Below are positions 2,106 through 56,984 of a stretch of DNA of 64,000 nucleotides, piece after piece. Under the pieces are notes generated by a model. The model was not told the DNA's origin, did not search any database, and saw nothing but the letters and a program-made list of their open reading frames with translations. The position numbers were made by a program, and so were the translations under genes. The stretch is from Microbacterium sp. SL75 (GTDB taxonomy: Bacteria; Actinomycetota; Actinomycetes; Actinomycetales; Microbacteriaceae), in NCBI RefSeq assembly GCF_026625865.1, contig NZ_CP113067.1:3224001-3288000 (forward strand). Direction: 5' to 3'. Every line of letters starts with the position of its first letter. The stretch's first letter is position 1.

Positions 2106-2178
2106 ACGCATAAACGCTCTGCGCGCGCATAAACGCGAAGACACCGCGTTTATGCGCGCGGGCCGCGTTTCTGCGCGC
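2106..2178. repeat. 19-bp-pitch palindromic element, copy A
   Basis: This is an extragenic palindrome built from four decamers. GCATAAACGC begins at 2108 and 2127, and its inverse begins at 2146 (GCGTTTATGC) and 2165 (GCGTTTCTGC), exactly 19 bp apart each time. The inner arms, around a 7-nt centre (AAGACAC), can pair perfectly over about 15 bp. The element lies in the 241-bp gap between nusB and the helicase gene, far from any start codon. Five related copies occur at 26741, 26968, 27202, 56748 and 56913. Confidence 0.9.
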
Positions 2179-2240
2179 CGAGAGGTCGCCGGGGGCGACG
2201 TTCCGGCCGCGATGTCGGAGGTCAGCGGAAGGATCGTGCC

Positions 2241-5189
2241 GTGACCTCGTGGCGCGACCTCGTCCCCGAGGGCGCGCGGACCGCGTTCGAGCCGCTCGCC
2301 CTCGGCGTCGAGCTGCGCCAGCGCGAGGCCTACGACCCGTCGCGCTGGGAGGCGCGAGCGGTGGTGCCCGTCACGCCGCGATCGCTGGCGAAACGGCAGG
2401 ACGACCTGCAGCTGGTCGCCCGCCCCCTCGTGCGTGGGTCACGAGACGCGTGGATCCGCGCGGATGCCACGTGGGATGCCGTCCGGCGGTCCTCCGGCCG
2501 GTTCTACCCCGCACACGTGAGGTGGTTCGCCGAGCTCCACGCCCTGGCGCAGGCCCTGCGCACGGCGGGTCCCTTCGCCCCGTCGGGGGACACCGTGGCG
2601 CTCGACGCCATCGACTCGCCGCTGCTGTGGCCGCACCTGGCCGCGGCCGAGGGTCTCGGCATCCCTCTCGTTCCGATGCACGCGCAGCAGCGTGTGCGAC
2701 TCGCTCGTGAAGCGACGGCGCGTGTGGCCCTCGACGCGGTGGGTCAGGGAGCACTGCGTGTGTCGGCGGCCCTCGAGCTCGACGGGCGGTCGACGGATGC
2801 CGCGCACGCCCGCGCCATCGGCGACTCGGGGCTGTTCGCCTATGCGATCGACGTCGACCCGGTGCCGATCGTGCTGGCCGCCGTCGATCTGCCCGCACCG
2901 CTGCCGTCGCTGCTCGGGGCTCCGCCGGTCGATGTGCCGCCGTCCGAGGCCGCCGAGTTCGTGGCGGAGGTCTATCCCCGGCTCGCTCGGCGCGCGCCCC
3001 TGTCGGTGGGGGCGGGGGTTCCGGCCCCACCGCCGGCACGCCCGACCCTCGAGGTGGCGGTCGGCTACGAGGACGACGTCGTGACCTACCGGCTCACCTG
3101 GGCGTATCCCGGCGGTCTCCGTGTCGCCTACGGCTCAGACGCAGACGACGGCGAACGCGAGGTGCGCGCCGAGGCACAGATCGGTGAGCGGTTCGCGACG
3201 GCGTGGGCGGCGGCAACCGACCTGCCGATCGCGGCGAGCGCGATCCTGCGTGATGCCGATGCCGCCGTCTTCGCGACGCGCGTGCTGCCCACCGTCGATG
3301 TGCTCGACGAGGTGCGGGTGCGCACGACCGGCACCGCCCCGGCGTTCCGCGAGCTGCGGGGCGACCCGTCGCTGCGCATCACCGCGGTGGAGTCCCTCAA
3401 CCGCGATTGGTTCGACCTGGGGATCGTCGTGACCATCGAGGGGCGCACGATCCCGTTCGGGATGCTGTTCTCGGCCCTGTCGCGCGGGAGGACACGGGTC
3501 AAGCTCTCGGACGGCGCGTGGTTCTCTCTCGCGCATCCCGCCCTGCAGCGTCTGCGGGAACTGTTGGAAGAGGCCGCGGCCCTCGACGAGTGGGAGACGG
3601 GTCCGCGTCTTTCGCGTACCCATATGTCGCTGTGGGCCGAGTTCGAAGACCTGGCCGACCAGTCCGACGCCGCCGTCGAATGGCGCGGTCTCGCTCGGGC
3701 CCTGCGCGGTGTCGCCGACGTACCGGACGTGCCGACGCCCGCCGGATTCTGCGCCGAGCTGCGCCCGTACCAGCGCGAGGGGCTGTCGTGGCTCGCGTTG
3801 CTGCACGCGCACCGGCTCGGCGGCATCCTGGCCGATGACATGGGTCTCGGCAAGACGCTGCAGCTGCTCGCCCTGGTCGCGCACACGCGTGCGCTCGGCC
3901 AGACCCGCCCCTGGCTCGTGGTCGCCCCCACGTCTGTGCTGCCCACGTGGCGCGACGAAGCCGCGCGTTTCGCCCCCGATCTGCGGGTCGCCCTGGTCGA
4001 GGCCACGTCGGTGCGTCGCACGCGGACGGTCGCCGAGATCGCCGCGGGCGTCGACGTCGTGGTCGCCCCCTACGGGGTCGTGCGCACGGATGCCGAGGAG
4101 TTCGGCGTGCCGCACTGGGGCGGTGTCGTCCTCGACGAGGCGCAGTTCGTGAAGAATCCGGCGACGCGGATCCATCGCGCGATCGCGTCGCTGACCACGG
4201 ATGCCGTGTTCGCGGCGACGGGGACCCCGATCGAGAACGGCCTCGACGACCTCTGGGCGCTGCTGGCGCTCACCGCCTCCGGGCTGTTCCCCTCGATCCG
4301 GCAGTTCCGCGAGGACTACACGCGCGCGATCGAGCAGCTGCCCGCGGATGCCCCGACCGCGATCTCGGCGGCCGCGGCGAGCGCGCACCGCGAGAAGACA
4401 CTGGAGCGGCTTCGTCGACGCGTGCGACCGTTCCTCTTGCGCCGAACGAAGGATGTCGTGGCATCCGATCTGCCTCCCAAGCAGGAGCAGGAGATCGCCG
4501 TCCCCCTCGGCCCCGCCCATCAGGAGCTCTACGACCGGGTCCTGCAGCGCGAGCGGCAGAAGGTGCTGGGTCTTCTCGACGACCTCGATCGGCAGCGCTT
4601 CATCGTGTTCCGGTCCCTGACCCTGCTGCGCATGCTCGCCCTGGCGCCGGGGCTCGTCGACGAACGCGACGCGCACCTCGGGTCGGCGAAACTCGACGTT
4701 CTGCTCGAGCGCCTCGTCGAGGTGGCCGCCGAGGGGCACCGCGCGTTGGTGTTCAGCCAGTTCACGTCGTTCCTCGACCTCGCCGCCCAGAGGTTGGATG
4801 CCGAGGGCCTGTCGTACGCGCACCTCGACGGCTCCACCACCCGGCGCGGGGACGTGATCGACGGGTTCCGCGGGGGAGACGCCCCGGTGTTCCTCATCAG
4901 TCTCAAAGCGGGTGGGTTCGGTCTGACCCTCACCGAGGCCGAGTACGTGTTCGTTCTCGACCCGTGGTGGAACCCCGCCGCGGAGTCGCAGGCCATCGAC
5001 CGCGCTCACCGCATCGGGCAGACCAAGAGCGTGTTCGTGTACCGCCTCATCGCCGCGGGCACGGTGGAAGAGAAGGTTCGGGCTCTGCAGCATCGGAAGG
5101 CTGCGCTGTTCGACGCGGTGATCGACGACGGCGACGCGTTTGCGGCCGCCCTGGACGCCGACGACATCCGGGGACTGCTGGGGCCGTGA
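2241..5189 (+). CDS. SNF2-family DEAD/DEAH helicase (bacterial Swi2/Snf2 ATPase)
   Basis: The predicted protein has 982 residues. The first ~480 residues are a poorly conserved bacterial N-terminal region. The SNF2 ATPase core follows, with the Q-motif region LRPYQREGLSWL near 505, Walker A ADDMGLGKT (Lys538) and Walker B DEAQ (632-635). The C-terminal helicase lobe has DPWWNPAAESQAIDRAHRIGQ near 910-925. Such proteins are dsDNA translocases that often remodel RNA polymerase or nucleoprotein complexes. No SWIM zinc finger, methylase or nuclease is encoded nearby, so there is no sign of a DISARM- or restriction-type system. The start is GTG, with GGAAGGA 8-14 nt upstream. The gene stands alone in a small insertion between nusB and the pyr operon. 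Confidence 0.9.
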   Translation: MTSWRDLVPEGARTAFEPLALGVELRQREAYDPSRWEARAVVPVTPRSLAKRQDDLQLVARPLVRGSRDAWIRADATWDAVRRSSGRFYPAHVRWFAELHALAQALRTAGPFAPSGDTVALDAIDSPLLWPHLAAAEGLGIPLVPMHAQQRVRLAREATARVALDAVGQGALRVSAALELDGRSTDAAHARAIGDSGLFAYAIDVDPVPIVLAAVDLPAPLPSLLGAPPVDVPPSEAAEFVAEVYPRLARRAPLSVGAGVPAPPPARPTLEVAVGYEDDVVTYRLTWAYPGGLRVAYGSDADDGEREVRAEAQIGERFATAWAAATDLPIAASAILRDADAAVFATRVLPTVDVLDEVRVRTTGTAPAFRELRGDPSLRITAVESLNRDWFDLGIVVTIEGRTIPFGMLFSALSRGRTRVKLSDGAWFSLAHPALQRLRELLEEAAALDEWETGPRLSRTHMSLWAEFEDLADQSDAAVEWRGLARALRGVADVPDVPTPAGFCAELRPYQREGLSWLALLHAHRLGGILADDMGLGKTLQLLALVAHTRALGQTRPWLVVAPTSVLPTWRDEAARFAPDLRVALVEATSVRRTRTVAEIAAGVDVVVAPYGVVRTDAEEFGVPHWGGVVLDEAQFVKNPATRIHRAIASLTTDAVFAATGTPIENGLDDLWALLALTASGLFPSIRQFREDYTRAIEQLPADAPTAISAAAASAHREKTLERLRRRVRPFLLRRTKDVVASDLPPKQEQEIAVPLGPAHQELYDRVLQRERQKVLGLLDDLDRQRFIVFRSLTLLRMLALAPGLVDERDAHLGSAKLDVLLERLVEVAAEGHRALVFSQFTSFLDLAAQRLDAEGLSYAHLDGSTTRRGDVIDGFRGGDAPVFLISLKAGGFGLTLTEAEYVFVLDPWWNPAAESQAIDRAHRIGQTKSVFVYRLIAAGTVEEKVRALQHRKAALFDAVIDDGDAFAAALDADDIRGLLGP

Positions 5190-5259
5190 GGGGCGGGGGT
5201 GGCGACTGCGCGTTGCCCCGACACCCCGCGCTCCCCGGACGCTCGCAGCCGTGCGCGCG

Positions 5260-5265
5260 TAGACT
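5260..5265 (+). promoter_or_regulatory. Probable -10 element (TAGACT) for the MBL-Rieske gene
   Basis: TAGACT lies 30 nt before the ATG at 5296, giving a short leader that contains AGGAGCGG as the ribosome site. Confidence 0.5.
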
Positions 5266-5295
5266 CTTCGGGTTCGCCAACGACACAGGAGCGGC

Positions 5296-6879
5296 ATGAA
5301 GATCACCGGCCTCGGCCACGCGGGAATGTTCATCGAGACGCGCGGCGGCAGCATCATCTGCGACCCCGTCATCGGCCCGAGCTTCTTCGGCTCGTGGTTC
5401 CCCTTCCCCGACAACCGCGCCCTCGACTGGGAGCGTTTCGGCAAGGCGGACTTCCTGTACATCTCTCACCGCCACCGCGATCACTTCGATCCGGCGATGC
5501 TGGAACGCTACGTGTCGAAGGACATCAAGGTGCTCCTGCCCGAGTACCCGACCGACGACCTCGAGCAGGACCTCATCGCGCTCGGCTACACGAACCTCAT
5601 CCGCACCGAGGCCGGCGTGCCCCTGCAGTTCGGCGACCTGAAGCTCATGGTGACGCCGCTGCGCGCCCCCTCCGACGGTCCGATCGGCGACTCGTCGCTG
5701 TCGCTCGACGACGGCACCGCGTCGATCCTCAACCAGAACGACTCGCACCCGCTCGACCTCGACAAGCTGTTCGACTTCGGCAAGCCCGACGCGTACTTCA
5801 CGCAGGTCTCCGGCGCGATCTGGTGGCCCATGGTCTACGACCTGCCCCAGGACGCGAAGCAGAACTTCGCGCAGCTCAAGCGCGACGCGCAGAACAAGCG
5901 CGCGATGTACTACATCGACAAGGTGGACGCCGAGCACGTGTTCCCGATGGCCGGTCCGCCGATGTTCCTGCGCGAGGAGCTGTTCCGCTACAACGGCACG
6001 GGCCTCGAGAACGACTCGATCTTCACCGACCAGCGGGAGTTCCTCGCGCACATGAAGGAGCAGCGCCCCGACCAGAAGGGCTACCTGTTCCTCCCGGGGA
6101 CCGAGGTCGAGGTGCAGGGGTCGGACGTCACCGTCACCCAGACGCTGTACACGGATGCCGAGATCGAGCGTGTCTTCGGTGACAAGTGGAACTACCTGGC
6201 CGAGCAGCGCGACAGCCGTCAGGCAGAGGTGCGGGCCGAGGAGGCCACTCGCGCGGAGGTCATCCCCCCGGCGGAGATGCTCGCCGCGATCAAGGAGTGG
6301 TGGGAGCCGCTGCTGCGTCGTGCCCGCACGATCCGCAACGGTGTCGGCGGCATGGTGCGCTTCCGCATCGGCGAGCTCGACATGGTCGTGGACTTCCCCA
6401 AGGCGAAGGTCCGGGAGTACGCGGGCGAAGAGTGCATCTACTGGTACACGATCCCCGCCGACCTCGTGTCGACGAACATCCGGGATCACGAGATCGACTG
6501 GTCGAACTCGATCTTCCTGTCGATGCAGTTCGAGGTGGGTCGTTCGGGCAAGTTCAACGAGTTCCTCACGACGTTCCTCAAGTGCCTGTCGCGCGACCGC
6601 ATCGAGTACGTCGAGAACTGGTACGCCGAGCAGTCGGATCAGACCGAGGATGCCGAGATCGACGGGTGGACCGTTCAGCGCCGCTGTCCGCATCTGCGCG
6701 CGGACCTCACCAAGACCGGCAAGATCGAGAACGGCGTGCTGACGTGCTCGCTGCACGACTGGAAGTGGGACCTGGCCAGCGGTCGCTGCTTGACCACGAC
6801 GGGTCACCCGATCCGCTCCACGCCCAGCGGCGAGCGCGCCGAGGCCGAGCGGGCTGCCGCCGAAGTCGCCGCTGGCTGA
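5296..6879 (+). CDS. MBL-fold / Rieske [2Fe-2S] fusion protein, CMAH-like
   Basis: This 527-residue protein has two recognisable modules. The N-terminal half is a metallo-beta-lactamase fold starting GLGHAGMFIET, with the metal motif H58-x-H60-x-D62-H63. The C-terminal part carries a Rieske cluster motif, C464-P-H466 and C484-S-L-H487, near the end of the chain. Rieske plus MBL is the domain set of CMP-N-acetylneuraminate hydroxylase, but that enzyme has the Rieske domain first and here it is last. The likely role is oxygenation of an unidentified substrate, with the Rieske centre feeding electrons to an MBL-bound metal; this is inference. The VOC protein gene starts 4 nt after the stop codon and probably belongs to the same transcript. 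Confidence 0.8.
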   Translation: MKITGLGHAGMFIETRGGSIICDPVIGPSFFGSWFPFPDNRALDWERFGKADFLYISHRHRDHFDPAMLERYVSKDIKVLLPEYPTDDLEQDLIALGYTNLIRTEAGVPLQFGDLKLMVTPLRAPSDGPIGDSSLSLDDGTASILNQNDSHPLDLDKLFDFGKPDAYFTQVSGAIWWPMVYDLPQDAKQNFAQLKRDAQNKRAMYYIDKVDAEHVFPMAGPPMFLREELFRYNGTGLENDSIFTDQREFLAHMKEQRPDQKGYLFLPGTEVEVQGSDVTVTQTLYTDAEIERVFGDKWNYLAEQRDSRQAEVRAEEATRAEVIPPAEMLAAIKEWWEPLLRRARTIRNGVGGMVRFRIGELDMVVDFPKAKVREYAGEECIYWYTIPADLVSTNIRDHEIDWSNSIFLSMQFEVGRSGKFNEFLTTFLKCLSRDRIEYVENWYAEQSDQTEDAEIDGWTVQRRCPHLRADLTKTGKIENGVLTCSLHDWKWDLASGRCLTTTGHPIRSTPSGERAEAERAAAEVAAG

Positions 6880-6882
6880 CCC

Positions 6883-7293
6883 GTGCCGGGGTTCCATCAC
6901 GTCGAGGTCTGGGTCGCCGACCCGGTCGTGGCGCGCGCGGACTGGGGGTGGTTGCTCGACCAGCTCGGATTCAAGCGCAGCGCCGAGTGGACCGAGGGGG
7001 AGTCGTGGGCCGCGGGGGAGTCCTACCTCACCCTCACCACGTCGCCCAATCTGTCCCGTCCCGATCACGACCGTCGCGCCCCGGGTGTGAACCACCTGGC
7101 ATTCCGCGGGGGTTCTCGAGCGCGCGTCGACGAGATCATGGCGTCCTGCTCGGATCACGGTTGGCGGCCCCTCTACCAAGAGCGCTATCCGTTCGCCGGC
7201 GGTCCGGCCCACTACGCCGGATGGATGGAGAACTCCGCCGGCTTCAAAGCAGAGATCGTCGCCGACGAGGACGAGACCCCGACCCTCGACTGA
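6883..7293 (+). CDS. VOC-family (glyoxalase/bleomycin-resistance-like) protein
   Basis: The product has 136 residues with the glyoxalase-fold pattern: PGFHHVEVWVADP at the N-terminus, APGVNHLAFR in the middle and ENSAGFKAEIVADEDE near the end. His and Glu in these segments are the usual metal-ligand positions. The start is GTG, only 3 bases after the stop of the MBL-Rieske gene, with no separate promoter. The substrate is unknown; pairing with an oxygenase suggests a dioxygenase or isomerase step on the same compound. Confidence 0.85.
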   Translation: MPGFHHVEVWVADPVVARADWGWLLDQLGFKRSAEWTEGESWAAGESYLTLTTSPNLSRPDHDRRAPGVNHLAFRGGSRARVDEIMASCSDHGWRPLYQERYPFAGGPAHYAGWMENSAGFKAEIVADEDETPTLD

Positions 7294-7447
7294 CGCGCCC
7301 TGCGAAGGCGGCGCCAGCCGAATGACATGGCACGCTCCTCGCCGGATGCGCGGGTGCGGCCGACGGCGGCGGGGTCGCCGAGCTACCCCGCTGATACGGA
7401 CCCCCGCCGCACAGCTTCTCTCCACGGCATCCGGCCAGCCCACCCGC

Positions 7448-7453
7448 TAGACT
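7448..7453 (+). promoter_or_regulatory. Probable -10 element (TAGACT) of the pyr operon
   Basis: TAGACT lies in the 219-bp gap before pyrR. It would start a leader of about 50 nt that includes the PyrR-binding hairpin. Apart from one GGCATCC heptamer at 7426, nothing else is recognised in 7294-7447. Confidence 0.55.
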
Positions 7454-7472
7454 GGTCCGAGAACCACAGCAA

Positions 7473-7505
7473 CCTTTAACCCCGTCCCGTGAGGCGGAGA
7501 AGGGA
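7473..7505 (+). promoter_or_regulatory. Putative PyrR-binding hairpin overlapping the pyrR ribosome site
   Basis: The segment GTCCCGTGAGGCG matches the known PyrR RNA-binding loop consensus (ARUCCNGNGAGGYU). It is flanked by CCTTTAACCC on the left and GGAGAAGGG on the right, which can pair as CCUU/AAGG and CCG/CGG with an internal bulge. The right arm contains the GGAGAAGGGAG Shine-Dalgarno of pyrR. This is the layout described for mycobacterial PyrR translational repression, in which UMP-bound PyrR stabilises the hairpin and hides the ribosome site. No terminator/antiterminator pair follows, so translational control is more likely than attenuation. Confidence 0.75.
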
Positions 7506-7512
7506 GCGGCGG

Positions 7513-8043
7513 ATGAATACGCGCACCGTCATGCACGATGCCGATATCGCCCGCGCTTTGACGCGCATATCGCACGAGATCCTGGAGTCCAACAAAGGAC
7601 CGGAGGGACTCGTCCTCCTCGGCATCCCGACCCGCGGCGTCACGCTCGCGAATCGGATCGGCCCTCTCGTCAGCGAGTTCGGCGGTGCTCCCGTCGCGGT
7701 CGGCTCCCTCGACGTGACGATGTACCGCGACGATCTGCACCGCAATCCCACGCGGTCCCCGCGGAAGACCGAGATCCCCGCCGGGGGCATCGACGGCAAG
7801 ACGGTCGTGCTGATCGACGACGTGCTGTTCTCGGGCCGCAGCATCCGTGCCGCCCTCGACGCTCTGCAGGACATCGGCCGCCCCGCCGCCGTGCGCCTTG
7901 CGACGCTGATCGACCGCGGTCACCGCGAACTGCCGATCCGCCCCGACTTCGTGGGCAAGAACCTCCCCAGCGCCCGCGACGAGCGTGTCAACGTGCGCCT
8001 CGCCGAGATCGACGGCGTCGAGGAGGTGACGATCGAATCATGA
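7513..8043 (+). CDS. pyrR: PyrR: pyr operon RNA-binding regulator / uracil phosphoribosyltransferase
   Basis: The protein has 176 residues, typical of PyrR. It has the type I phosphoribosyltransferase fold with the PRPP-binding motif [17 protein letters not shown] near 97-113 and the N-terminal RISHEILE helix. PyrR binds its own leader RNA when UMP is high and can also convert uracil and PRPP to UMP. The ATG at 7513 is preceded by GGAGAAGGGAG; an in-frame upstream start at 7489 would lie inside the RNA-binding site and is rejected. The stop overlaps the pyrB start (ATGA), so it heads a tightly coupled operon whose order matches the mycobacterial pyrR-pyrB-pyrC-x-carA-carB-pyrF. Confidence 0.95.
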
Positions 8044-9008
8044 GGCACCTCCTCGACACGCAGCGCCTCGGGCGCGATGACGCCCTGCAGATCCTCGACG
8101 TCGCCGAAGACATGGCCGACACCCAGCGCCGCGAGGTCAAGAAGCTTCCGACCCTGCGCGGAAAGACCGTCGTCAACCTCTTCTTCGAGGACTCCACGCG
8201 CACGCGCATCTCGTTCGAGGCCGCCGCCAAGCGCCTCTCCGCCGACGTCATCAACTTCTCGGCGAAGGGCTCGAGCGTCAGCAAGGGCGAGTCGCTCCAG
8301 GACACCGCGCAGACCCTTCAGGCGATGGGGGCGGATGCCGTGGTCATCCGCCACGGAGCCTCCGGCGCTCCTCGGACCCTCGCGACCTCCGGCTGGATCA
8401 GCGCGGGCGTGGTGAACGCCGGCGACGGCACGCACGAGCACCCGACCCAGGCCCTGCTGGACGCGCTCACGATCCGCAAGCGCCTGTTCGGCGACGACAG
8501 CCGCGGCCGCGACCTCAGCGGCATCCGGGTGACGATCGTCGGCGACGTGCTGCACTCGCGCGTCGCGCGCTCGAACGTCTGGCTGCTGCACACCCTGGGC
8601 GCCCAGGTCACCCTTGTCGCCCCGCCCACGCTCGTGCCGCAGGACGTCAGCGGGTGGCCCGTGGAGATCGACTACGACCTCGATCATGCGATCGCAGCGG
8701 GTCCGGACGCCCTCATGATGCTCCGCATCCAGCTCGAGAGAATGAGTGCCGCGTATTTCCCGACTGAACGGGAGTATTCCCGCCGGTACGGTCTCGACGC
8801 GCGGCGTTTGCAGGCTCTGCCGGACGGTAGCATTGTCCTGCACCCCGGTCCGATGAACCGGGGTCTGGAGATCTCCGCCGAAGCCGCCGATTCGCCTCGT
8901 TCGACGGTGCTCGAGCAGGTCACGAACGGTGTCTCCGTGCGGATGGCCGTTCTCTACCTGCTTCTGGCGGGCGAACGGCCCCACACCGAGAAAGAGGACC
9001 TCCGATGA
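8040..9008 (+). CDS. pyrB: Aspartate carbamoyltransferase catalytic subunit
   Basis: The 322-residue protein forms N-carbamoyl-L-aspartate from carbamoyl phosphate and aspartate, the committed step of UMP synthesis. The phosphate-binding loop S52-T-R-T-R56 and the HPTQALLD segment are intact. No pyrI regulatory-chain gene is present, as usual in actinobacteria, so control is expected at the level of expression through PyrR. The start overlaps the pyrR stop by 4 bases, and its own stop overlaps the pyrC start in the same way. Confidence 0.97.
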
Positions 9009-11996: not shown

Positions 11997-15272
<3,276 letters not shown>

Positions 15273-26694: not shown

Positions 26695-26740
26695 CGGTCG
26701 CGCCCGCTCGGTCCGCCGGCTCCGGGCCAGGCCGCATCTC

Positions 26741-26813
26741 ACGCATAAACGCTCTGCGCGCGTGAAAACGCGTTCTCCCCGTGTTTATGCGCGCGGAGAG
26801 CGTTTATGCGCGC
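26741..26813. repeat. 19-bp-pitch palindromic element, copy B
   Basis: The four decamers begin at 26743 (GCATAAACGC), 26762 (GTGAAAACGC), 26781 (GTGTTTATGC) and 26800 (GCGTTTATGC), each 19 bp apart. The outer arms pair perfectly over 13 bp. It is the first of three elements in the 652-bp gap between rpe and hisE. Confidence 0.9.
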
Positions 26814-26967
26814 CCAGGAGCCCGCTCCGGCCGCATCCGGCACCGGCCCGCACCCGCGCCAGCCCACCGCCCACGCCCCACGCCGGCCCACCACCCGCGC
26901 CCCGCGCCCCGCGCCAGCCCACCGCCCGCACCCCGCGCCGCGCGGCGGCCCGCCGCCCGCTTCACGC

Positions 26968-27039
26968 ACGCAGAAACACGATCCACGCGCACAAACACGC
27001 GCTCCCCGCGTTTATGCGCGCGGAGAGCGTTTATGCGCG
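26968..27039. repeat. 19-bp-pitch palindromic element, copy C
   Basis: The four decamers begin at 26970 (GCAGAAACAC), 26989 (GCACAAACAC), 27008 and 27027 (both GCGTTTATGC). The right arm is intact and the left arm has drifted. Confidence 0.85.
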
Positions 27040-27201
27040 CCCGGGAGCCCGCTCCGGCCGCATCCGGCGCCGGCCCGCACCCGCGCCCGCCCACTGCCCA
27101 CGCCCCACGCCGGCCCACCGCCCCACGCACTGCGCCCAGCGCCCCACGCCCCACGCCCTGCGCGTAGCACCCCGCGCGGCGGCCCGCCGCCCGCACCCCG
27201 C

Positions 27202-27272
27202 ACGCATAAACACGATCCACGCGCACAAACACGCGCTCCCCGCGTTTATGCGCGCGCAGAGCGTTTATGCGT
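27202..27272. repeat. 19-bp-pitch palindromic element, copy D
   Basis: The four decamers begin at 27204 (GCATAAACAC), 27223 (GCACAAACAC), 27242 and 27261 (both GCGTTTATGC). It shares the left-arm changes of copy C, which supports tandem duplication. It ends 75 bp before the hisE start. Confidence 0.88.
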
Positions 27273-27346
27273 GAGAGCACCGGGATGCCGGGACCCCGAC
27301 GCCCGGGCGGACAGCCCCACCCCCGCCGACCCGATACCCTGGACAG

Positions 27347-48171: not shown

Positions 48172-48176
48172 TCTCC

Positions 48177-50671: not shown

Positions 50672-50787
50672 ATCACCCCGAGGCGTCGCGGAGGTGTTCT
50701 CCGCTCGGGCCTCCGGCCGCACGACGGGACCCGTCCCGGAGGGCAGCCGTTGCCTGCGACCGCATCGCGCCCGCGTAGGCTCGAGCC

Positions 50788-51552
50788 ATGGCATCCGTCC
50801 GCTACGTCGCGATCGGCGACTCGTTCACCGAAGGCGTCGGCGACGAACTGCCCGACGGCACCGTCCGGGGCTGGGCCGATCTGGCGGCGCAGGGATGGGC
50901 GGATGCCGCGGGGGAGCCGATCGAGTACGCGAACCTCGCGATCCGCGGCAGGCTCATCGAGCCGATCGTCGCTCAACAGCTCGAGCCCGCGCTGGCGCTG
51001 AAGCCGACGCACCTGTCGTTCAACGGCGGCGGCAACGACATGCTGCGTCCACGAACGGGCATCGACCGCATCGTCGACCTCTTCGACCACGTCGTGCGCC
51101 GCTGCGATGAAGAGGGCGTCAAGCTCATCGTGCTGTCGGGCGCGAACCCCACGGCCGGGCTTCCTCTCGGCAAGGTCATCGAAGCCCGCGGTGATCGCCT
51201 CTCGCGCGCCGTCGAGAAGCGCCTCGAGGGCCGGTCCGATGTGATCACGGCGTACAACTGGTTCGACCGCAAGCTCGCGGGCGGGGAGTTCTGGTCGGTC
51301 GACCGGCTGCACATGAACGCGCGCGGTCATCACCGGGTCGCCGCGCGCGTGATCGAGTCGGTCGGCCTCACCCCGCCCACGGAGTGGTGGAACCTGCGCG
51401 AGATCCCCGAAGCCCAGCGTCTGAAGGGCACCGCCTATTACCGCGAGCACGTCGGCCCCTGGGTCCGCCGGCGTCTTACGGGCACCTCGTCGGGCGACAA
51501 CCGTCAGGCGAAGTTCGGCGGCGGGTGGGTGGAGCTGACGCCGGGGGATTGA
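50788..51552 (+). CDS. SGNH/GDSL-family hydrolase
   Basis: The 254-residue esterase-like protein has the block I motif AIGDSFTEG (nucleophile Ser12), the Gly/Asn blocks LAIRGR and FNGGGNDM, and the D172-x-x-H175 block V (VDRLHMNARGH). No signal peptide is present, so it acts in the cytoplasm; substrate unknown. TAGGCT at 50776-50781, 6 nt before the ATG, marks a leaderless start. Confidence 0.9.
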   Translation: MASVRYVAIGDSFTEGVGDELPDGTVRGWADLAAQGWADAAGEPIEYANLAIRGRLIEPIVAQQLEPALALKPTHLSFNGGGNDMLRPRTGIDRIVDLFDHVVRRCDEEGVKLIVLSGANPTAGLPLGKVIEARGDRLSRAVEKRLEGRSDVITAYNWFDRKLAGGEFWSVDRLHMNARGHHRVAARVIESVGLTPPTEWWNLREIPEAQRLKGTAYYREHVGPWVRRRLTGTSSGDNRQAKFGGGWVELTPGD

Positions 51553-51654
51553 GCGACGTCGTCCTCGGATCGCCGGGTCTCGGCATCCGCTGATCTCTGC
51601 GCACATGCCCTCGTCGAGATGCGCCCCCTGCGAGACTGTGCGCGGGGGGAACAT

Positions 51655-52161
51655 ATGAAGAGAACCGTTTTTGCGCTCATCGTCGCTGTCGCGACCGTCG
51701 CCACCACCACGAGCTGCGCGGCGCACGCCGCAGGCGCATCGGGGCCGACACCGACCCCGAGCATCGCTGCGTCGTACGCATGCCCCACGATGGAGGGCGT
51801 ACAGCTGCCGCCGGAGTGCGCTCCCTACGATCCGGATGCGGCGATGGCGGCGAACGAACGGTATCGCGACCGGATGAGCATCGACGACGACGCGCGCGCG
51901 GCCGCCGAGGATGTCTCGGCCGATATCGTCGCCGTGCTGCGGACGGCAGCCAAGGAGAAGGAGCTGTCGGCCGAGGAGGTCGCCACGCTGCTCGACGAGG
52001 GGGGAGCGCTGTCGCCGCAGGTGCGCGCCGAGGCGAACAGCGTGCTTTTCGCGGCGACCGGGCCGCAGGGCGGCTGCCTTTTCGGAGAGGTGTCCGGCAC
52101 CTCCGTCTCGGTCGAGATCGGCGGCTACATCCTCGACGGTGGGTGCCTGCCTGCGCAGTGA
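51655..52161 (+). CDS. Small lipoprotein of unknown function
   Basis: The 168-residue protein has an N-terminal signal with lipobox-like TTSC (Cys at about 21). The mature part is short, acidic and helical (residues 60-120), then a Gly-rich end with two cysteines that could form a disulfide. No family is recognised. The ATG at 51655 is preceded by GGGGGGA; an earlier in-frame ATG at 51619 would bury the signal peptide and is rejected. Confidence 0.7.
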   Translation: MKRTVFALIVAVATVATTTSCAAHAAGASGPTPTPSIAASYACPTMEGVQLPPECAPYDPDAAMAANERYRDRMSIDDDARAAAEDVSADIVAVLRTAAKEKELSAEEVATLLDEGGALSPQVRAEANSVLFAATGPQGGCLFGEVSGTSVSVEIGGYILDGGCLPAQ

Positions 52162-52180
52162 GCGGGAGACCGGGGCGGCG

Positions 52181-52840
52181 TCAGCCCCTCAGCGACCGCG
52201 GCACTCCGCGGTCAGCGAGTCCGCAGGACTCGTGCATCAACTCGACGATCACGGGGAGATCGAAAGACGGGCTACCGGCGGGGACCGCTTCGACACGGTA
52301 TGTATCACCGTCCACATCAACCCGATAGTCTCCGGCGGCGAAGGGGTGCTCGCCGCCGCGCAGAGAGCCGCTGTCCACCTTGGTAGCCAGCAGACCGTCC
52401 GTCCGGAGGACATCCACCGTCGTGTGCCGCCACGGCGTGCTCTCGCGGACGACGTATCCCGTCGCACACCCGTTCGCGTTGAGCGGCACCACCGAGCTCT
52501 CCAAGAACAGGGCCACCAGAATCCCCGCGGGGATGATTGCGCAGAAGGCGAGGAAGCGTAGCGGGAGGAAGAGCACCAACCACCACCGCGGTGCCGGTAT
52601 CGCGCAGACAAGCGCGAAGAAGGCGACGGCGGACGCCATCCACGCTGCCACGACGATCTTGCCCGCATCCCATGACCCCACGAGCAACTCGGTCTTGCCG
52701 TCGCCCTGCCGGGAGAGAGCCCCCACGCCGGTGATGATCGCGATGGCTAACGCCAGCAGCGTGGCAGCGACGAGGATGACGAGCCCTCGCCACGGGCGGG
52801 CGGATTGCTGTCGAACCGGTGAGGCGGGGACGTCGGTCAC
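52181..52840 (-). CDS. Hypothetical membrane protein
   Basis: The 219-residue protein has four hydrophobic segments (about 16-38, 58-75, 80-98 and 100-120) and a C-terminal soluble region of about 90 residues. No family is recognised. The start is GTG at 52840, without a clear ribosome site. The frame stays open further upstream, but that part is antisense to the neighbouring SDR gene and is rejected. It is convergent with the upstream lipoprotein gene and divergent from the SDR. Confidence 0.65.
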   Translation of the reverse strand: MTDVPASPVRQQSARPWRGLVILVAATLLALAIAIITGVGALSRQGDGKTELLVGSWDAGKIVVAAWMASAVAFFALVCAIPAPRWWLVLFLPLRFLAFCAIIPAGILVALFLESSVVPLNANGCATGYVVRESTPWRHTTVDVLRTDGLLATKVDSGSLRGGEHPFAAGDYRVDVDGDTYRVEAVPAGSPSFDLPVIVELMHESCGLADRGVPRSLRG

Positions 52841-52916
52841 CCGCCCCACCCTGGCAGCATCCCCTGGACAACCCCCGCACACCGAACCCATGGGATCCGA
52901 GGCGCATGATGAGACC

Positions 52917-53726
52917 ATGACTCTCGCACTCGTCACCGGAACCACCAGCGGCATCGGCATGCACACCGCGATCCAGCTCGCGCAACGGGGGGTGACGGTC
53001 GTCGCCACCGTCCGCGACACCGCGCGCGCCGACGCCCTGCGCTCCGCGGCATCCGAGGCGGGTGTCGAGCTCGACATCCGGGCCCTGGATGTGACGGATG
53101 CCGAGGGCGCCCGCGCCCTGATCGAGGCCACGGGCCCCGTGGACATCCTCGTGAACAACGCCGGGCGCGGCGCCGTGGGCACCCTCGAACAGGTGAGCGA
53201 CGACGAGCTGCAGGAGCAGCTCGAGACGAACTACCTCTCGGTCGCGCGTCTGACCCGTCTCGTCCTCCCCGATATGCGTGAGCGGGGGAGCGGCCGCATC
53301 GTGACGGTGACGAGCGTCGGGGGAGCGGTGGGGCAACCGTTCTCCGACGCGTACTGCGGCGCGAAGTTCGCCGTCGAGGGTCTCATGCAGTCGCTCGCCC
53401 CGGTGGTCGCCCCCTTCGGAGTCGATGTGTCGATCGTCGAACCGGCCGCCGTCGCCTCGTCGTTCGTCGACTCGGTGCACCGCGCCGCCCCCGGCCCGTA
53501 CGCGGAACTGCAGCAGGCGTACCTCGACCGCGCGGCGACCTCGTTCGCATCGGCGCAGTCGGCGGAGGACGCTGCGAAGACCGTCGTCGAGGCCGCCACC
53601 ACCTCGGCCCCGCGGTTCCGCTGGCAGACCTCGGATGCCGCGACCCAGTTCGCCGGCCTGTCGCTGGGCGACCTCGACGGTTCGAGTGTGCTGAACGTGA
53701 CGTCGGGGTGGGTGCAACGCGACTGA
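52917..53726 (+). CDS. Short-chain dehydrogenase/reductase
   Basis: The 269-residue Rossmann protein has the NAD(P) motif TGTTSGIG (residues 7-14), NNAGRG, and the catalytic Ser plus Y146-C-G-A-K150. It is an SDR of classical type with unknown substrate. CATGAT at 52905-52910 lies 6 nt before the ATG with no ribosome site, so it is probably leaderless. Confidence 0.9.
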   Translation: MTLALVTGTTSGIGMHTAIQLAQRGVTVVATVRDTARADALRSAASEAGVELDIRALDVTDAEGARALIEATGPVDILVNNAGRGAVGTLEQVSDDELQEQLETNYLSVARLTRLVLPDMRERGSGRIVTVTSVGGAVGQPFSDAYCGAKFAVEGLMQSLAPVVAPFGVDVSIVEPAAVASSFVDSVHRAAPGPYAELQQAYLDRAATSFASAQSAEDAAKTVVEAATTSAPRFRWQTSDAATQFAGLSLGDLDGSSVLNVTSGWVQRD

Positions 53727-53731
53727 GGGGT

Positions 53732-53750
53732 CGCCCCGTTCGCGGGGGCG
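53732..53750. terminator. Short hairpin between convergent genes
   Basis: CGCCCC (53732-53737) pairs with GGGGCG (53745-53750) around a 7-nt loop, 6 bp after the SDR stop and 27 bp before the end of the convergent hydrolase gene. There is no T-tract, and adjacent C/G runs allow alternative pairings. Confidence 0.45.
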
Positions 53751-53776
53751 CCCCGCCCCGCCTGATCGCCCCGCGG

Positions 53777-54718
53777 TCAGTACAGAAGGGCCGCCGGCTC
53801 GAGGTGGGAGGTCTGGTCACCCACCAGGGAGAGTTCGCGCGGATCGATCTTGCGGACCTCGGCCGTGTCGGCCAGGTCGTCGAGACTGATCCAGAAGATG
53901 TTGGGGCTCCGCGTCGAACCGAAGTAGTAGACCCGATTGGTCAGGTCGGCGCCGGCGCGCCACCACGTGGGGTAGACGTCGCCCGTCGAGTACGGTGCGC
54001 CGTAGGGGACCGAGACGTTGGCGATGAGCTGGAATACCCCCGCCACGGCCTCCTCGGTGTTCTCCGGCTCGGGCAGGTAGTGCAGGAAGTACGCCGAACG
54101 CACGAACCTGTCGGCCGAGGTGATGTCACCGGGCGGCTGGAGTTCGCCGCCGAAAGGTCGGTATCGCGACAGGTTCTCCAGCTGCTTGTCGAGCGTGGGG
54201 GAGTTGGCCATGACCGTGTACTCGGGGCCGTGGTGCACGACGAGCTCACCTCCGAGCGGCTCGATGATCGCCGAGTCGCCGGTCGGATCCTCGATCGCGA
54301 TGTGCACCCCGAGCTGCATGCCGCGGAACTCCGGCGAAGTGATGCGCACGCGGCCGATATGCGCGACGGCCTCGGCGACGGTGGCGAAGTTGTCGAGCAG
54401 ATACTGCACCCAGAGAGCATTGGCGACAGAGGGGCGCCCGTCCGGCTCGGGAAATGCGACGTCCTCGGGATCGAGGTACAGGGCGTGCGCCCCGAGTCCC
54501 TTCTCGTTCAGCCCGTCGACGGTGCCGAGGCCCCACATGCTCGTGACGACGCTCGAGTACGACGACGTCCAGGCCAGCGAGTGATCATCGGCGCGACCGT
54601 CGCGGGCCGTGCCGCGGGGAACGAACCACAGTTCGGGTTCGTCGCTCACCGCCCAGTCCATGCAGCGACTGACCGTCTTGGCGACGTCGTTCGTGTTCCA
54701 GAGGATTCGTGTGCACAC
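53777..54718 (-). CDS. Choloylglycine hydrolase / penicillin V acylase-like Ntn hydrolase
   Basis: The 313-residue protein begins V-C-T-R, so Cys2 becomes the N-terminal nucleophile after removal of the initiator, as in bile-salt hydrolase and penicillin V acylase. The WNTNDVAKTVSRCMDW and GLNEKGLGAHALYL segments match the family. No signal peptide is present. Its substrate is a linear amide, possibly an acyl-homoserine lactone or N-acyl amino acid. TACGCT (complement 54725-54730) lies 6 nt before the GTG, so the mRNA is leaderless; its promoter overlaps that of the divergent gene at 54762. Confidence 0.88.
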   Translation of the reverse strand: MCTRILWNTNDVAKTVSRCMDWAVSDEPELWFVPRGTARDGRADDHSLAWTSSYSSVVTSMWGLGTVDGLNEKGLGAHALYLDPEDVAFPEPDGRPSVANALWVQYLLDNFATVAEAVAHIGRVRITSPEFRGMQLGVHIAIEDPTGDSAIIEPLGGELVVHHGPEYTVMANSPTLDKQLENLSRYRPFGGELQPPGDITSADRFVRSAYFLHYLPEPENTEEAVAGVFQLIANVSVPYGAPYSTGDVYPTWWRAGADLTNRVYYFGSTRSPNIFWISLDDLADTAEVRKIDPRELSLVGDQTSHLEPAALLY

Positions 54719-54761
54719 GCGTGCAGCGTATCCCGTCGCCGCGGGGCGATATGGTGCAGAA
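54719..54761. promoter_or_regulatory. Overlapping divergent leaderless promoters
   Basis: Only 43 bp separate the two divergent start codons. The leftward -10 is TACGCT (complement 54725-54730) and the rightward is TATGGT (54750-54755). Each would have its -35 region across the other promoter, so polymerase could occupy only one at a time. Confidence 0.6.
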
Positions 54762-55130
54762 ATGCCCGACATCACGGAGACCCGACCGACCAGCCCCTGG
54801 GGGTGGGTCGGCATGTGGGTGCGCGAGGAGAAGTTCTGGCGCGACATCGGCGCGCGCGTGCTCGCGGGCGTGATCACCGCGGCCGTCGTCTACTCCGGCG
54901 CCCTGCTCCTCGGGTACCTGCACACGCCCGAGATCGGGGCAGGTCTTCTGCTGGCTCTCGGCATCGTCGCGTGCGGCGTCCTGGTCACGGGTAGCGTTCA
55001 CCTGCTCCGGAGCGCCCGAGCACGGGGCCGCGCGGGAAGCTCGCGAAGCTGGCACATCATCGTGGCGATCGTGCTGCTGCTCGCATCGGTTGCCATCGCG
55101 ATCGGCATAGCAACGGACCTGCTGCGCTAG
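54762..55130 (+). CDS. Small hypothetical membrane protein
   Basis: The 122-residue protein has an N-terminal Trp-rich amphipathic segment (WGWVGMWVREEKFW) and three helices (about 34-52, 58-76 and 98-118). No family is recognised. TATGGT 6 nt before the ATG and no ribosome site suggest a leaderless transcript. It is divergent from the Ntn-hydrolase gene. Confidence 0.65.
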   Translation: MPDITETRPTSPWGWVGMWVREEKFWRDIGARVLAGVITAAVVYSGALLLGYLHTPEIGAGLLLALGIVACGVLVTGSVHLLRSARARGRAGSSRSWHIIVAIVLLLASVAIAIGIATDLLR

Positions 55131-55149
55131 CCCTCGTCTTCCTTGGCGC

Positions 55150-55695
55150 TTACGACGGCACGGCCGGCGGATCCCATGAGCACACAGCATCCGCCAGCTC
55201 CGCTACCGTCGACCGGCTGTCGAGATGGAGCACCGGCTTACCCGTCGCCGCGAGCCACGTGTCGTGCTCGAAACGGTTGCGGCCGTCGAAGGTGGGTTCG
55301 TCGTACCCCTCGGCCCACGTTCTGAACACGCGCCAGGCCTCGTCGTCGTGCGGCTGACCTCTGCGGCGGATGACCTCGCGCGCTTCGAGCCGACGCAGGC
55401 GTTCCGTGGGGTCCAGGGTGAGGAAGACGATCGCGTCGCACTCGGCGACGACCGACTCGCCCCACCCGAGCATCGACCCGGAGAGTACCCAGGCGGGGCG
55501 CGACACGAAGATCTCGCGCATCAGCGCGACCCTCTGCATCTCGTCCCTCTTCTGGAGGAACGGGGGAGTGGTCGGCATCCAGAAGTAGTCGTCCGCATCG
55601 GCGTGCGGAACCGCCCACCGCGCGGCCAGCGCGTGACCCAGCGTGGTCGTTCCGCTGCCGCTCGCGCCCAGGATGTGCAGGCGGGAAACATTCAT
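55150..55695 (-). CDS. P-loop nucleotide kinase-like protein (adenylate-kinase superfamily)
   Basis: The 181-residue protein opens RLHILGASGSGTTTLG; in its P-loop G10-A-S-G-S-G-T-T-T18 the usual Walker Lys is replaced by Thr16. A family of small adenylate-kinase-like proteins shares this GSGTTT loop. It also has DADDYFWMPTTPPF and the lid-like RRLEAREVIRRRG. Substrate unknown. The ATG at 55695 lacks a strong ribosome site and lies 14 nt after the end of a degenerate SDR fragment on the same strand. Confidence 0.8.
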   Translation of the reverse strand: MNVSRLHILGASGSGTTTLGHALAARWAVPHADADDYFWMPTTPPFLQKRDEMQRVALMREIFVSRPAWVLSGSMLGWGESVVAECDAIVFLTLDPTERLRRLEAREVIRRRGQPHDDEAWRVFRTWAEGYDEPTFDGRNRFEHDTWLAATGKPVLHLDSRSTVAELADAVCSWDPPAVPS

Positions 55696-55709
55696 CTCGC
55701 CGGGTCCCG

Positions 55710-55814
55710 TCAGGGCAGGATGCTGTCGACGTACCCGCCGTCGACGCGCAGAGCACCGCCGGTGGTCGCCGAGGTCGATGCCGACGCGAGCTCGATCGTC
55801 ATGGTGCTGCTCAT
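55710..55814 (-). pseudogene. C-terminal remnant of an SDR oxidoreductase
   Basis: The minus strand encodes 34 residues ending TTGGALRVDGGYVDSILP, the typical C-terminus of short-chain dehydrogenases (the VDGG block). No Rossmann motif or catalytic Tyr-Lys lies upstream; only about 15 further in-frame codons of Arg-rich sequence precede it. It therefore looks like a deletion remnant, and the deletion seems to have joined the kinase-like gene to foreign upstream sequence. Confidence 0.6.
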
Positions 55815-55917
55815 TCCGGTTTCCACCCTTCGTCGCTTTCGACGCCAGCCCGAGAGGCCTGGGGGAGGTCCGCGGAGCGGCATCAACTCATCAGACTTTA
55901 ATCAAGACACCTCGCGA

Positions 55918-55955
55918 GCACACGTGTGCCTGCCATAGAGTTATCGGGCGATAAC
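55918..55955. promoter_or_regulatory. Promoter with two palindromic operator candidates
   Basis: GCACACGTGTGC (55918-55929) is a perfect 12-bp palindrome. GTTATCG-GG-CGATAAC (55940-55955) is a perfect 7-2-7 dyad. TAGAGT at 55936-55941 is a possible -10 for the lipoprotein gene at 55981, and the second dyad would overlap the start of transcription, a typical repressor position. The AT-rich dyad stands out in this genome. Confidence 0.6.
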
Positions 55956-55980
55956 AACGATCTCGAAAGCGAGGATCGCG

Positions 55981-56622
55981 ATGACCCGCAACCAGATCTT
56001 CACCCGCCGGCGCGCGGCCAGCCGGGCAACGACCGCGCTTGCCGCCTGCCTCGTCGGCGCATCCCTTCTTGCCGGATGCGCCATCGCCATCGACGACACG
56101 CACGACGCACTCACCCCGGGCGAGGACTCATCTTCGAACGACATGGACGTCTCCGACGGCGTGGGGACCCTATCCACGACGACCCCCTTCCCACGCATCA
56201 CGAGTTGCGATCAGGTCGCCGGCGCGCTTGCGTCCTTCGTGAGCGGCATGACGCTGGTCGGCGAGAGCATCGCCGATGACGGCGTGCTCTGCCAGTGGGC
56301 CGCGCCCGACGAAGGCCCCTTCGCCAGCGTGACCGTGGCTGCCGCCGATGACGTTCCGACCCGTGACGCGCTGGAGATGCAGGGCACGATGCTCCACCTC
56401 ACTCCGACGCGCATCGACGACCCGCGCCTGGACGATGTCCGTGGACTCGGCGTCCGGTGGACGACGGACGGCGCGCCCGACAGCCCCGGATACTCCAATG
56501 TGTACGTGCCCGGAGTGTCGATCGAACTGCATGATGGTCGGCACGGCGGCTCGGGCGCCGAGTCCTACGCACCCAGCGATGACACCACGGTGACCGTCGC
56601 GCTCGCAGTGCTCGGCCTCTGA
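55981..56622 (+). CDS. Lipoprotein of unknown function
   Basis: The 213-residue protein has a twin-arginine-like N-terminus (TRRRAASR), a hydrophobic stretch and lipobox LLAGC (Cys33). The mature region begins with an acidic linker, followed by a compact domain with SCDQVAGALASFVSGM and a Cys in LCQWAAP. That pattern resembles actinobacterial DUF3558-like lipoproteins, but the match is weak. The ATG has AAAGCGAGG upstream. It is probably regulated through the dyads before it. Confidence 0.7.
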   Translation: MTRNQIFTRRRAASRATTALAACLVGASLLAGCAIAIDDTHDALTPGEDSSSNDMDVSDGVGTLSTTTPFPRITSCDQVAGALASFVSGMTLVGESIADDGVLCQWAAPDEGPFASVTVAAADDVPTRDALEMQGTMLHLTPTRIDDPRLDDVRGLGVRWTTDGAPDSPGYSNVYVPGVSIELHDGRHGGSGAESYAPSDDTTVTVALAVLGL

Positions 56623-56697
56623 CGTGTCAGCATCACCTGACGCCTGCCCGATCGCGCCAGGGACATGACGGGGAGGGCTTCGTCGGTTCAAGCTGAC

Positions 56698-56711
56698 ATA
56701 ATGTGCATTAT
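56698..56711. promoter_or_regulatory. AT-rich dyad in a gene-free region
   Basis: ATAATG-TG-CATTAT is a perfect 6-2-6 dyad, and its left arm also contains CATAAT, a good -10 hexamer reading toward the palindromic elements at 56748 and 56913. No gene starts downstream on the plus strand before 58600. Confidence 0.45.
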
Positions 56712-56747
56712 CGGCGCACACGCATCGCGCCACCGGCCGTCCCGCGA

Positions 56748-56822
56748 CGACGCATAAACGCTCCGAGCGACCAGAAACGCGAGCACAGCGTGTTTTTGGT
56801 CGCTGGGAGCGTTTATGCGTCG
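56748..56822. repeat. 19-bp-pitch palindromic element, copy E
   Basis: The four decamer positions begin at 56752 (GCATAAACGC), 56771 (CCAGAAACGC), 56790 (GTGTTTTTGG) and 56809 (GCGTTTATGC), again 19 bp apart. Inner sites have diverged jointly so that the arms still pair (GAGCGACCA with TGGTCGCT), evidence that the fold is maintained. Confidence 0.88.
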
Positions 56823-56907
56823 GGATCAGGGCCCGACGGCGCGGCTCATGCCTCAGCGGAGCCCGCTGATCGACCTCGACCCTGCACCGACCCCATGGCG
56901 CGACGAC

Positions 56908-56984
56908 GGCATCCATCAACGCTTCCCGCGCGCACAAACACGAGCACAGCGCGTTCATGTGCGCAGATCGCGTTCATGCGTGCG
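56908..56984. repeat. 19-bp-pitch palindromic element, copy F (degenerate)
   Basis: The sites begin at 56913 (CCATCAACGC), 56932 (GCACAAACAC), 56951 (GCGTTCATGT) and 56970 (GCGTTCATGC). The 19-bp pitch is kept but the arms match less well. It lies just before the 3' end of the dienelactone hydrolase gene. Confidence 0.7.

What the first reader, a model, noticed from the sequence alone, without database searches (positions are those of the whole stretch)
2106..56984. Family of intergenic elements with four decamers at an exact 19-bp pitch
Six extragenic copies (2106, 26741, 26968, 27202, 56748, 56908) share one design. GCATAAACGC-type decamers start at x, x+19, x+38 and x+57; the first two are in one orientation and the last two inverted. 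The pitch is kept exactly in all six, even where the decamers have diverged, and copy E shows compensating changes. Ordinary REP hairpins need only paired arms; the fixed pitch between all four sites suggests a protein that reads an array (19 bp is about 1.8 helical turns), or a mobile element with structured ends. No REP-associated transposase is in the window, and I know of no description of this family.
Basis: seen in the sequence. Interest (0 to 1): 0.8.

Follow-up and report, generated by a model that had tools for sequence, protein, structure and literature searches.

The report
Four-site repeats with partner nuclease
Dozens of short palindromic DNA arrays scattered between genes of this bacterium appear to belong to a previously undescribed partner gene, predicted to make a DNA-cutting protein, that sits between copies of the same array and whose relatives in other species often sit beside arrays with different letters but the same spacing.

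Summary
The six window copies are a 77-bp near-palindrome with four sites at 0/19/38/57. The genome has 52 copies found, all extragenic, all in register.

The missing partner lies outside the window: a 319-aa protein, without a Pfam or NCBIfam hit, between copies in the nusG-rplK gap. Its predicted fold joins an AbiEi-like DNA-binding half to a Vsr/EDxHD (I-Bth0305I-like) nuclease half. Of 149 genus genomes, 19 have seven or more hits; 18 of these carry a homolog of at least 55% identity, and no other genome does. They are one clade, so this alone is weak. More telling, lag-19 palindromes with other letters flank 40 of 56 named homologs outside that clade and 14 of 28 homologs in other genera. 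Within the clade letters are homogenised per genome: identity 0.77 between loci of one genome, 0.64 between genomes at one locus.

I infer a nuclease that reads the array and drives its copying or conversion, a logic like REP/RAYT with an unrelated enzyme. Binding and cutting are untested. Seven literature searches listed no description.

The parts
2103..2179 (.). Copy A of the four-site element (sites at 2108, 2127, 2146-, 2165-), between the called genes 1589-1999 (+) and 2241-5189 (+)
26738..26814 (.). Copy B (sites 26743, 26762, 26781-, 26800-), in the gap before hisE (rpe-hisE; gene names are mine from the sequence, no family search was run on them)
26965..27041 (.). Copy C (sites 26970, 26989, 27008-, 27027-), same gap
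27199..27275 (.). Copy D (sites 27204, 27223, 27242-, 27261-), same gap
56747..56823 (.). Copy E (sites 56752, 56771, 56790-, 56809-), between convergent genes 55981-56622 (+) and 56997-57770 (-); strongest hairpin
56908..56984 (.). Copy F (sites 56913, 56932, 56951-, 56970-), same convergent gap; diverged

Best explanation
The elements are the recognition arrays of a dedicated protein encoded elsewhere in the chromosome (contig place 482665-483621, outside the window). The protein is predicted to have an AbiEi-like DNA-binding half and a Vsr/EDxHD-type nuclease half.

Shown by sequence: the four-site geometry; the flanking of the gene by its own kind of element; correlated change of protein and element letters; within-genome homogenisation.

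Inferred: one protein copy sits on each site, giving two inward-facing pairs on a fixed 19-bp (about 1.8-turn) ladder. The nuclease halves meet near the variable 7-9 bp centre and cut or nick there. Repair from another copy then converts, tandemly multiplies and occasionally spreads the array. The element is thus a non-autonomous repeat kept up by a resident nuclease, as REPs are thought to be kept up by RAYT transposases, but with an unrelated enzyme.
For: (1) The gene lies between elements in the own genome, and a 72% homolog lies between elements in G007. Beside the gene, 14 of 17 clade-1 loci (L130-L146) have an R1 match at E<0.001.
(2) Of 149 genus genomes, 19 have 7 or more R1 hits. 18 of these have a homolog of at least 55% identity and no other genome does (Fisher 2.7e-22).
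(3) Letter-blind scan of flanks: 58 of 80 named homolog loci have at least one palindrome with a 19-bp internal repeat, 25 on both sides. Split: 18 of 24 clade-1 loci and 40 of 56 others. Genus loci: 25 of 30, 14 both sides; other genera: 15 of 30 loci, which is 14 of 28 genes (two genes were fetched twice). These sets overlap in part. The same scan over 123 kb of 32 control loci gave 4.
(4) Of 104 flank palindromes chosen without regard to pitch, the best internal lag is 19 in 80, other lags in 8, none in 16. Of 92 passing at lag 19, 88 fit the symmetric 77-bp frame. In that frame a faint shared core (A3, A5, C8) is met by 244 of 352 sites; outside clade 1 by 121 of 204, against at most 20 at the other shifts tried.
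(5) Protein and element similarity correlate over 55 loci (rho 0.59, 0 of 999 permutations).
(6) Identity 0.77 within a genome between loci against 0.64 between genomes at one locus, 12 of 12 genomes.
(8) AbiEi binds inverted repeats and its relative Rv2827c occupies four at once (PMC7319586 passages).
Against: The clade-1 genomes form one clade by hisE-hisG DNA (88-92% against at most 83% outside), so the co-occurrence is close to one event. Hits without a close homolog: G063 has 7-9 hits and an empty nusG-rplK gap; G023 has 2 hits (best E 8e-15) but is 83% complete; eleven further genomes have 1-2 weak hits. G090 has a 54% homolog and no R1 hit. Distant homologs occur in 129 of 149 genomes (E<=1e-10), so presence of the wider family predicts little.

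22 of 80 named loci, 5 of 30 genus loci and 14 of 28 genes of other genera showed no lag-19 palindrome in the scanned flanks; some flanks were cut by contig ends. 33 of 104 palindromes also pass at lag 17 and 8 at lag 21, which I ascribe to short repeats inside the words. The second model R2 (other letters) is not exclusive: 13 of the 18 clade-1 genomes also give R2 hits, from 1 to 28, and I did not check whether these are cross-matches or arrays of a second homolog.

Confidence: 0.68

Rival explanations
1. The protein is mainly a regulator. The arrays are its operators: it binds them to control itself and neighbouring genes or to organise the chromosome, and the nuclease half is vestigial or rarely used.
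For: The N-terminal half resembles AbiEi, an autorepressor that binds inverted repeats (PMC7319586 passages). Site letters are constrained beyond hairpin pairing: position 4 is mostly T or G in the outer sites without covarying.
Against: The nuclease acidic residues are invariant in 66 homologs. Arrays are enriched between convergent genes (14 of 29 gaps with elements against 18 of 161 without), where operators are not expected. Arrays also lie downstream of the gene.
Confidence: 0.16
2. The elements are bidirectional transcription terminators or mRNA 3'-end hairpins, and the nuclease link is incidental.
For: Strong hairpins in most window copies, extragenic position and enrichment between convergent genes.
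Against: A hairpin alone needs neither four matching sites nor an exact pitch kept across different letters. The nusG gap carries a separate GC-rich hairpin besides the elements. Copy F folds no better than shuffles and copy C only modestly (z -0.23 and -2.7) while their sites stay in register. 15 of 29 gaps are not convergent.
Confidence: 0.06
3. Classical REP elements mobilised by a Y1 (HUH) REP-associated tyrosine transposase.
For: Similar logic: dispersed, extragenic, palindromic, cognate flanking gene (PMC2817692 abstract).
Against: No Y1_Tnp match in the genome while 5 of 14 control genomes ring. The flanking protein has a Vsr/EDxHD-type predicted fold.
Confidence: 0.02
4. The homolog is a free-standing homing-type selfish gene that happens to target sites in these repeats; the repeats have another cause.
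For: The catalytic half matches a homing endonuclease. The gene sits in an intergenic gap that is 84-627 bp (14 of 16 at most 232 bp) in the 16 genomes without the gene in which both flanking genes are visible.
Against: A selfish gene using pre-existing repeats would not predict arrays of matching letters beside the gene in several separate loci and genera, nor the protein-element correlation.
Confidence: 0.08

Closest known systems
REP / REPIN elements with RAYT (TnpA-REP) transposases
   Same: Dispersed extragenic palindromes; a cognate gene flanked by them; element letters follow the enzyme; abundance goes with the gene (RAYT features from the PMC2817692 abstract).
   Different: The enzyme is a predicted AbiEi-Vsr/EDxHD fusion, not an HUH tyrosine transposase. 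The unit is a 67-bp four-site array with 19-bp pitch rather than a 20-40 bp palindrome (REP size from the start of the PMC3733652 abstract in the listing).
AbiEi / COG5340 antitoxins (AbiE type IV toxin-antitoxin)
   Different: Carries a nuclease half; the neighbours seen in clade 1 are nusG and rplK, not a toxin gene. Sites have 19-bp pitch and dozens of genomic copies, against 23-bp repeats in one promoter.
EDxHD homing endonuclease I-Bth0305I and Vsr endonuclease
   Different: It lies between repeat arrays of its own kind, with non-coding copies elsewhere in the genome; introns were not searched for.
DUF559 proteins
   Same: Same motif layout by eye; one of 66 homologs hits PF04480, weakly (E 0.0083).
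   Different: The own protein has no Pfam or NCBIfam match and carries the AbiEi-like half.

Membership tests
REP/RAYT | Cognate enzyme is an IS200/IS605-type (HUH, Y1) tyrosine transposase | tested here: not met
   0 PF01797 matches in own genome, 5 of 14 control genomes ring; partner fold is Vsr/EDxHD-like
REP/RAYT | Enzyme gene flanked by its own repeats | tested here: met
   25 of 30 genus loci have at least one, 14 both sides; 58 of 80 named loci, 25 both sides; so often, not always, and often on one side only
REP/RAYT | Repeat abundance tracks presence of the cognate gene | tested here: met
   18 of 19 multi-copy genomes carry the close homolog, 0 of 130 others; but one clade
REP/RAYT | Extragenic palindromic repeat | tested here: met
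   0 of 52 in called genes; hairpins in most window copies
EDxHD / Vsr-type nucleases | Catalytic-domain fold | tested here: met
EDxHD / Vsr-type nucleases | DNA cleavage | not testable with these tools
   Only conserved acidic residues seen
AbiEi antitoxins | AbiEi-like fold | tested here: met
AbiEi antitoxins | Adjacent DUF1814 nucleotidyltransferase toxin gene | tested here: not met
   A nusG-type neighbour is seen at 17 of 17 clade-1 loci and rplK at 15 of 17 (named through); neighbours of the other clades were not identified and the genome was not searched for DUF1814
Intrinsic terminators | Hairpin followed by a T-run at gene ends | tested here: inconclusive
   Hairpins present; no T-run noticed in the sequences read; the terminator scan was not run
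Homing endonuclease genes | Gene interrupts its own target; empty sites in relatives | tested here: inconclusive
   Gap without the gene in 16 genomes, but no target site identified there
MITE / insertion sequence | Target-site duplication and clean empty site | tested here: inconclusive
   rpe-hisE lacks the element in G009 and G053 but the gaps differ elsewhere too (by eye)

The most novel reading that the evidence does not exclude
A widespread, undescribed class of selfish or domesticated genetic system in Microbacteriaceae. AbiEi-Vsr fusion nucleases each read a private four-site, 19-bp-pitch DNA code, cut it, and drive genome-wide copying and concerted conversion of dozens of non-coding arrays. 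The code has been rewritten many times while its ruler stayed fixed. It would be a second, independent invention of the REP/RAYT way of life.
Probability: 0.53. Interest if true: 0.93.

Novelty: categorically new. Interest (0 to 1): 0.85.

Why it matters
REP-like repeats are common non-coding features of bacterial genomes, and for many their maker is unknown (general knowledge, no call). Here a family of repeats and a family of poorly annotated predicted nucleases can be paired by geometry across genera. That gives a likely function to proteins now named hypothetical or antitoxin-like, and offers dozens of natural protein/DNA-code pairs for learning how an AbiEi-type domain reads DNA. It also gives a tractable case of concerted evolution of dispersed sites in bacteria. 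If the nuclease cuts only the full array, it would be a long-specificity (67-bp, four-site) DNA cutter.

Tried and rejected
Y1/RAYT transposase: none in the genome. Rfam at gathering scores: only a tRNA in the window. Hairpin alone as the unit of selection: over the six window copies covariation does not exceed shuffles; over 52 own copies pairing agreement exceeds expectation mainly near the inner sites; the 14-sequence type-2 alignment does exceed shuffles on covariation score and cells paired. Phage or plasmid carriage: no phage match; two weak, partial plasmid matches. Solved relatives by sequence: none relevant. In the family sample R1 matches 15 of 398 genomes at E<=1e-4, G000 included, with at most 3 hits in any genome but G000 (12 candidates scored per genome); several of these weak hits look like other-letter arrays of the same plan and others like simple hairpins, judged by eye. 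Empty site with TSD at rpe-hisE: not clean. Genes next to array clusters (ribosomal protein L11, NusG, aldo-keto reductase, VIT1, helicase, GDSL lipase, transporters; the 10 proteins scanned) looked like ordinary neighbours and were dropped as partners. In one search one element of G024 was mis-centred; the test was rerun with small offsets allowed (11 of 12 genomes became 12 of 12).

Literature: ten searches. Searches looked for a description of this family or pairing; titles and starts of abstracts in their listings showed none, and the full texts were not read. Searches found background papers. Only open PMC papers are held. I read the abstract and section list of PMC2817692 and the abstract and passages of PMC7319586; others were seen only as listings.

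Full report
OBSERVATION. The six copies exist and are in register: four sites at 0, 19, 38 and 57, the last two inverted. The unit is a near-palindrome of 77 bp: S1, 9 bp, S2, 9 bp, inverted S2, 9 bp, inverted S1, plus short flanks. An equal S1-S2 spacing on the two arms follows from the palindrome itself. What does not follow is that S1 and S2 are the same word, and that the middle gap equals the arm gaps.

GENOME. A covariance model (R1) from the six copies finds 52 distinct copies in the 3.44-Mb chromosome (150 of 1,956 candidates scored), all with the exact pitch. 36 of the 52 have a neighbour starting within 600 bp; the neighbour distances are 100-371 bp. None lies in a called gene (home-made gene caller). 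Of 29 gaps holding elements, 14 are between convergent genes, 11 codirectional and 4 divergent; of 161 other gaps in the same fetched regions, 18, 115 and 28. Across the 52 x 4 sites, positions 6-8 (AAC) and 10 (C) never vary. Position 4 is mostly T or G and does not covary between outer partners. Positions 1-2 and 4 of the inner sites and the spacer bases next to them agree across the dyad more than expected. So the sites carry letters of their own, with hairpin pairing preserved mainly around the inner pair.

DISTRIBUTION. In 149 genomes of the genus 31 have an R1 match at E<=0.001 and 19 have seven or more hits (at most 32 candidates scored per genome, both strands count). In the family sample 15 of 398 genomes have a match at E<=1e-4, G000 included, none but G000 with more than 3. 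Several of those weak hits are, by eye, arrays with other letters and a similar plan. In other genus genomes a few copies span 74-78 bp rather than 77.

PARTNER. The nusG-rplK gap of the own genome is about 2 kb and holds a 319-aa frame between two elements, which my gene caller had missed. Translated search against the 130 loci then held found one homolog outside the own genome: in G007, 72% identical, beside the best-scoring element of that genome and between two elements. Across the 149 genomes 129 have some homolog at E<=1e-10, but homologs of at least 55% identity occur in 18, one of them (G044) split over two contigs. All 18 are among the 19 multi-copy genomes. The exception is G063, whose nusG-rplK gap is 232 bp and empty. 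G090 has a 54% homolog and no R1 hit; G023 has 2 hits and no homolog but is 83% complete. These 18 genomes form one clade by hisE-hisG DNA as far as tested (16 of the other 17 were compared), so I do not lean on the Fisher value (2.7e-22).

INDEPENDENT TESTS. The gene sits at one conserved place within each group of relatives but at different places in different groups. Homologs of about 45-55% identity sit beside palindromes with other words: CGAGAAACCA, CGAGACACCA, CGAGACCCCG and more, while clade 1 itself has both GCATAAACGC and CGATAAACGC types. In 80 named loci (381 relatives encoded, best 80 kept) the 104 palindromes chosen only for palindromy have best internal lag 19 in 80, other lags in 8, none in 16; 33 of 104 also pass at lag 17. 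58 of 80 loci have at least one lag-19 element: 18 of 24 in clade 1, 40 of 56 outside; both sides in 12 and 13. 88 of 92 lag-19 palindromes fit the symmetric 77-bp frame, and a faint core A3-A5-C8 is met there by 244 of 352 sites, outside clade 1 by 121 of 204 against at most 20 at the other shifts tried. In 14 genomes of other genera 13 have homologs, and 15 of the 30 loci fetched (14 of 28 genes) have lag-19 palindromes, with quite different words such as GAGTGTGAGG, TCGCGGCCCTCG, TATGCGGGTG; of 40 palindromes near those genes the best lag is 19 in 24, another in 2, none in 14. One G398 locus (L266) has arrays of nearly the same word as a dispersed copy on another contig of that genome (L096). 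The same scan on the 64-kb window gives five hits, all known copies, and on 123 kb of 32 control loci gives four, at least two of them solo arrays of the type-2 word.

SECOND MODEL. R2, from 14 type-2 arrays, matches 93 of 149 genomes. It finds nothing in G000, G006, G007 and G027, and in 12 genomes one or more hits lie within about 250 bp of a homolog (G036, G042, G046, G064, G071, G076, G080, G081, G082, G114, G115, G134; places compared). The arrays R2 was built from lie beside named homologs, and some may be the same genomes, so these neighbour hits are partly by construction. Against a clean split: 13 of the 18 clade-1 genomes also give R2 hits, 1 to 28 each. Their nature was not checked.

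CONCERTED CHANGE. At rpe-hisE, the place of copies B-D, 12 of 14 clade-1 genomes with both genes visible have the array, in letters like the other arrays of that genome (11 by R1, one by eye). Two (G009, G053) lack it. The 14 non-clade genomes have no R1 match there; one (G080) has an other-letter array. 17 of 27 array loci from other genomes fall at places where the own genome also has an array; the other 10 matched none of the own array regions. Over 74 arrays of 14 genomes (those at hand, found mostly by R1), identity is 0.77 within a genome between loci (190 pairs), 0.636 between genomes at one locus (739) and 0.654 between genomes at different loci (1,729); 12 of 12 testable genomes agree. 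The place carries no memory while the genome does. This is what conversion or turnover under a resident enzyme would give. Protein and array similarity correlate over 55 loci (rho 0.59); shared ancestry could give part of this.

MECHANISM. Shown: geometry, association, letter change with the protein, homogenisation. Inferred: a protein ladder on four sites, cutting near the variable centre, repair from another copy. Tandem clusters and concerted letters fit repair-driven copying. The fixed pitch fits four protein copies in set contact. Not shown: binding, cutting, movement. My probability that this gene family is the cognate partner is about 0.9; that it acts by cutting, about 0.65.

KNOWN SYSTEMS. 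The logic matches REP/RAYT as stated in the PMC2817692 abstract, but the defining enzyme test fails, so it is not filed as a REP/RAYT. It is not an AbiE system in clade 1 as far as neighbours show. It shares a predicted catalytic fold with EDxHD homing endonucleases. No description was found in the listings (open PMC papers only).

Noticed in passing
52 own copies: At site position 9 the two inner sites are never both A (17 and 18 of 52 have A, overlap 0, hypergeometric p 1e-4, ignoring relatedness of copies). The element may have a hidden polarity.
   Followed up: partly
L113:1501-1577 (G063): All four sites carry GAAC instead of AAAC in a genome that lacks the close nuclease; either a further letter type with another reader or decay. 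Other G063 copies were not read.
   Followed up: no
L144 / G073: The nuclease homolog has an in-frame TGA, and the G073 arrays read (L116, L126) are diverged, with 17 R1 hits in the genome: a possible natural loss of function.
   Followed up: no
L261, L262, L268: More distant homologs are flanked on both sides by simple strong palindromes that did not pass the 19-bp repeat test, suggesting a still wider class of palindrome-flanked nucleases.
   Followed up: no
L321 (G115), nusG-rplK gap: A solo type-2 array sits in the gap that in clade 1 holds the nuclease gene.
   Followed up: partly
L061:4230-4440 and 5750-5920: Low-complexity CACCAG- and GCGGCACGGC-type repeats fill the space around the arrays in the nusG-rplK gap; GC-rich degenerate repeats also separate copies B-D in the window (26830-27200).
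   Followed up: no
G429: One genome of another genus carries 13 matches to the nuclease profile, a promising place to look for several private codes in one cell.
   Followed up: no
L205: A contig labelled Microthrixaceae MAG carries a 47% homolog; perhaps a binning error, not checked.
   Followed up: no
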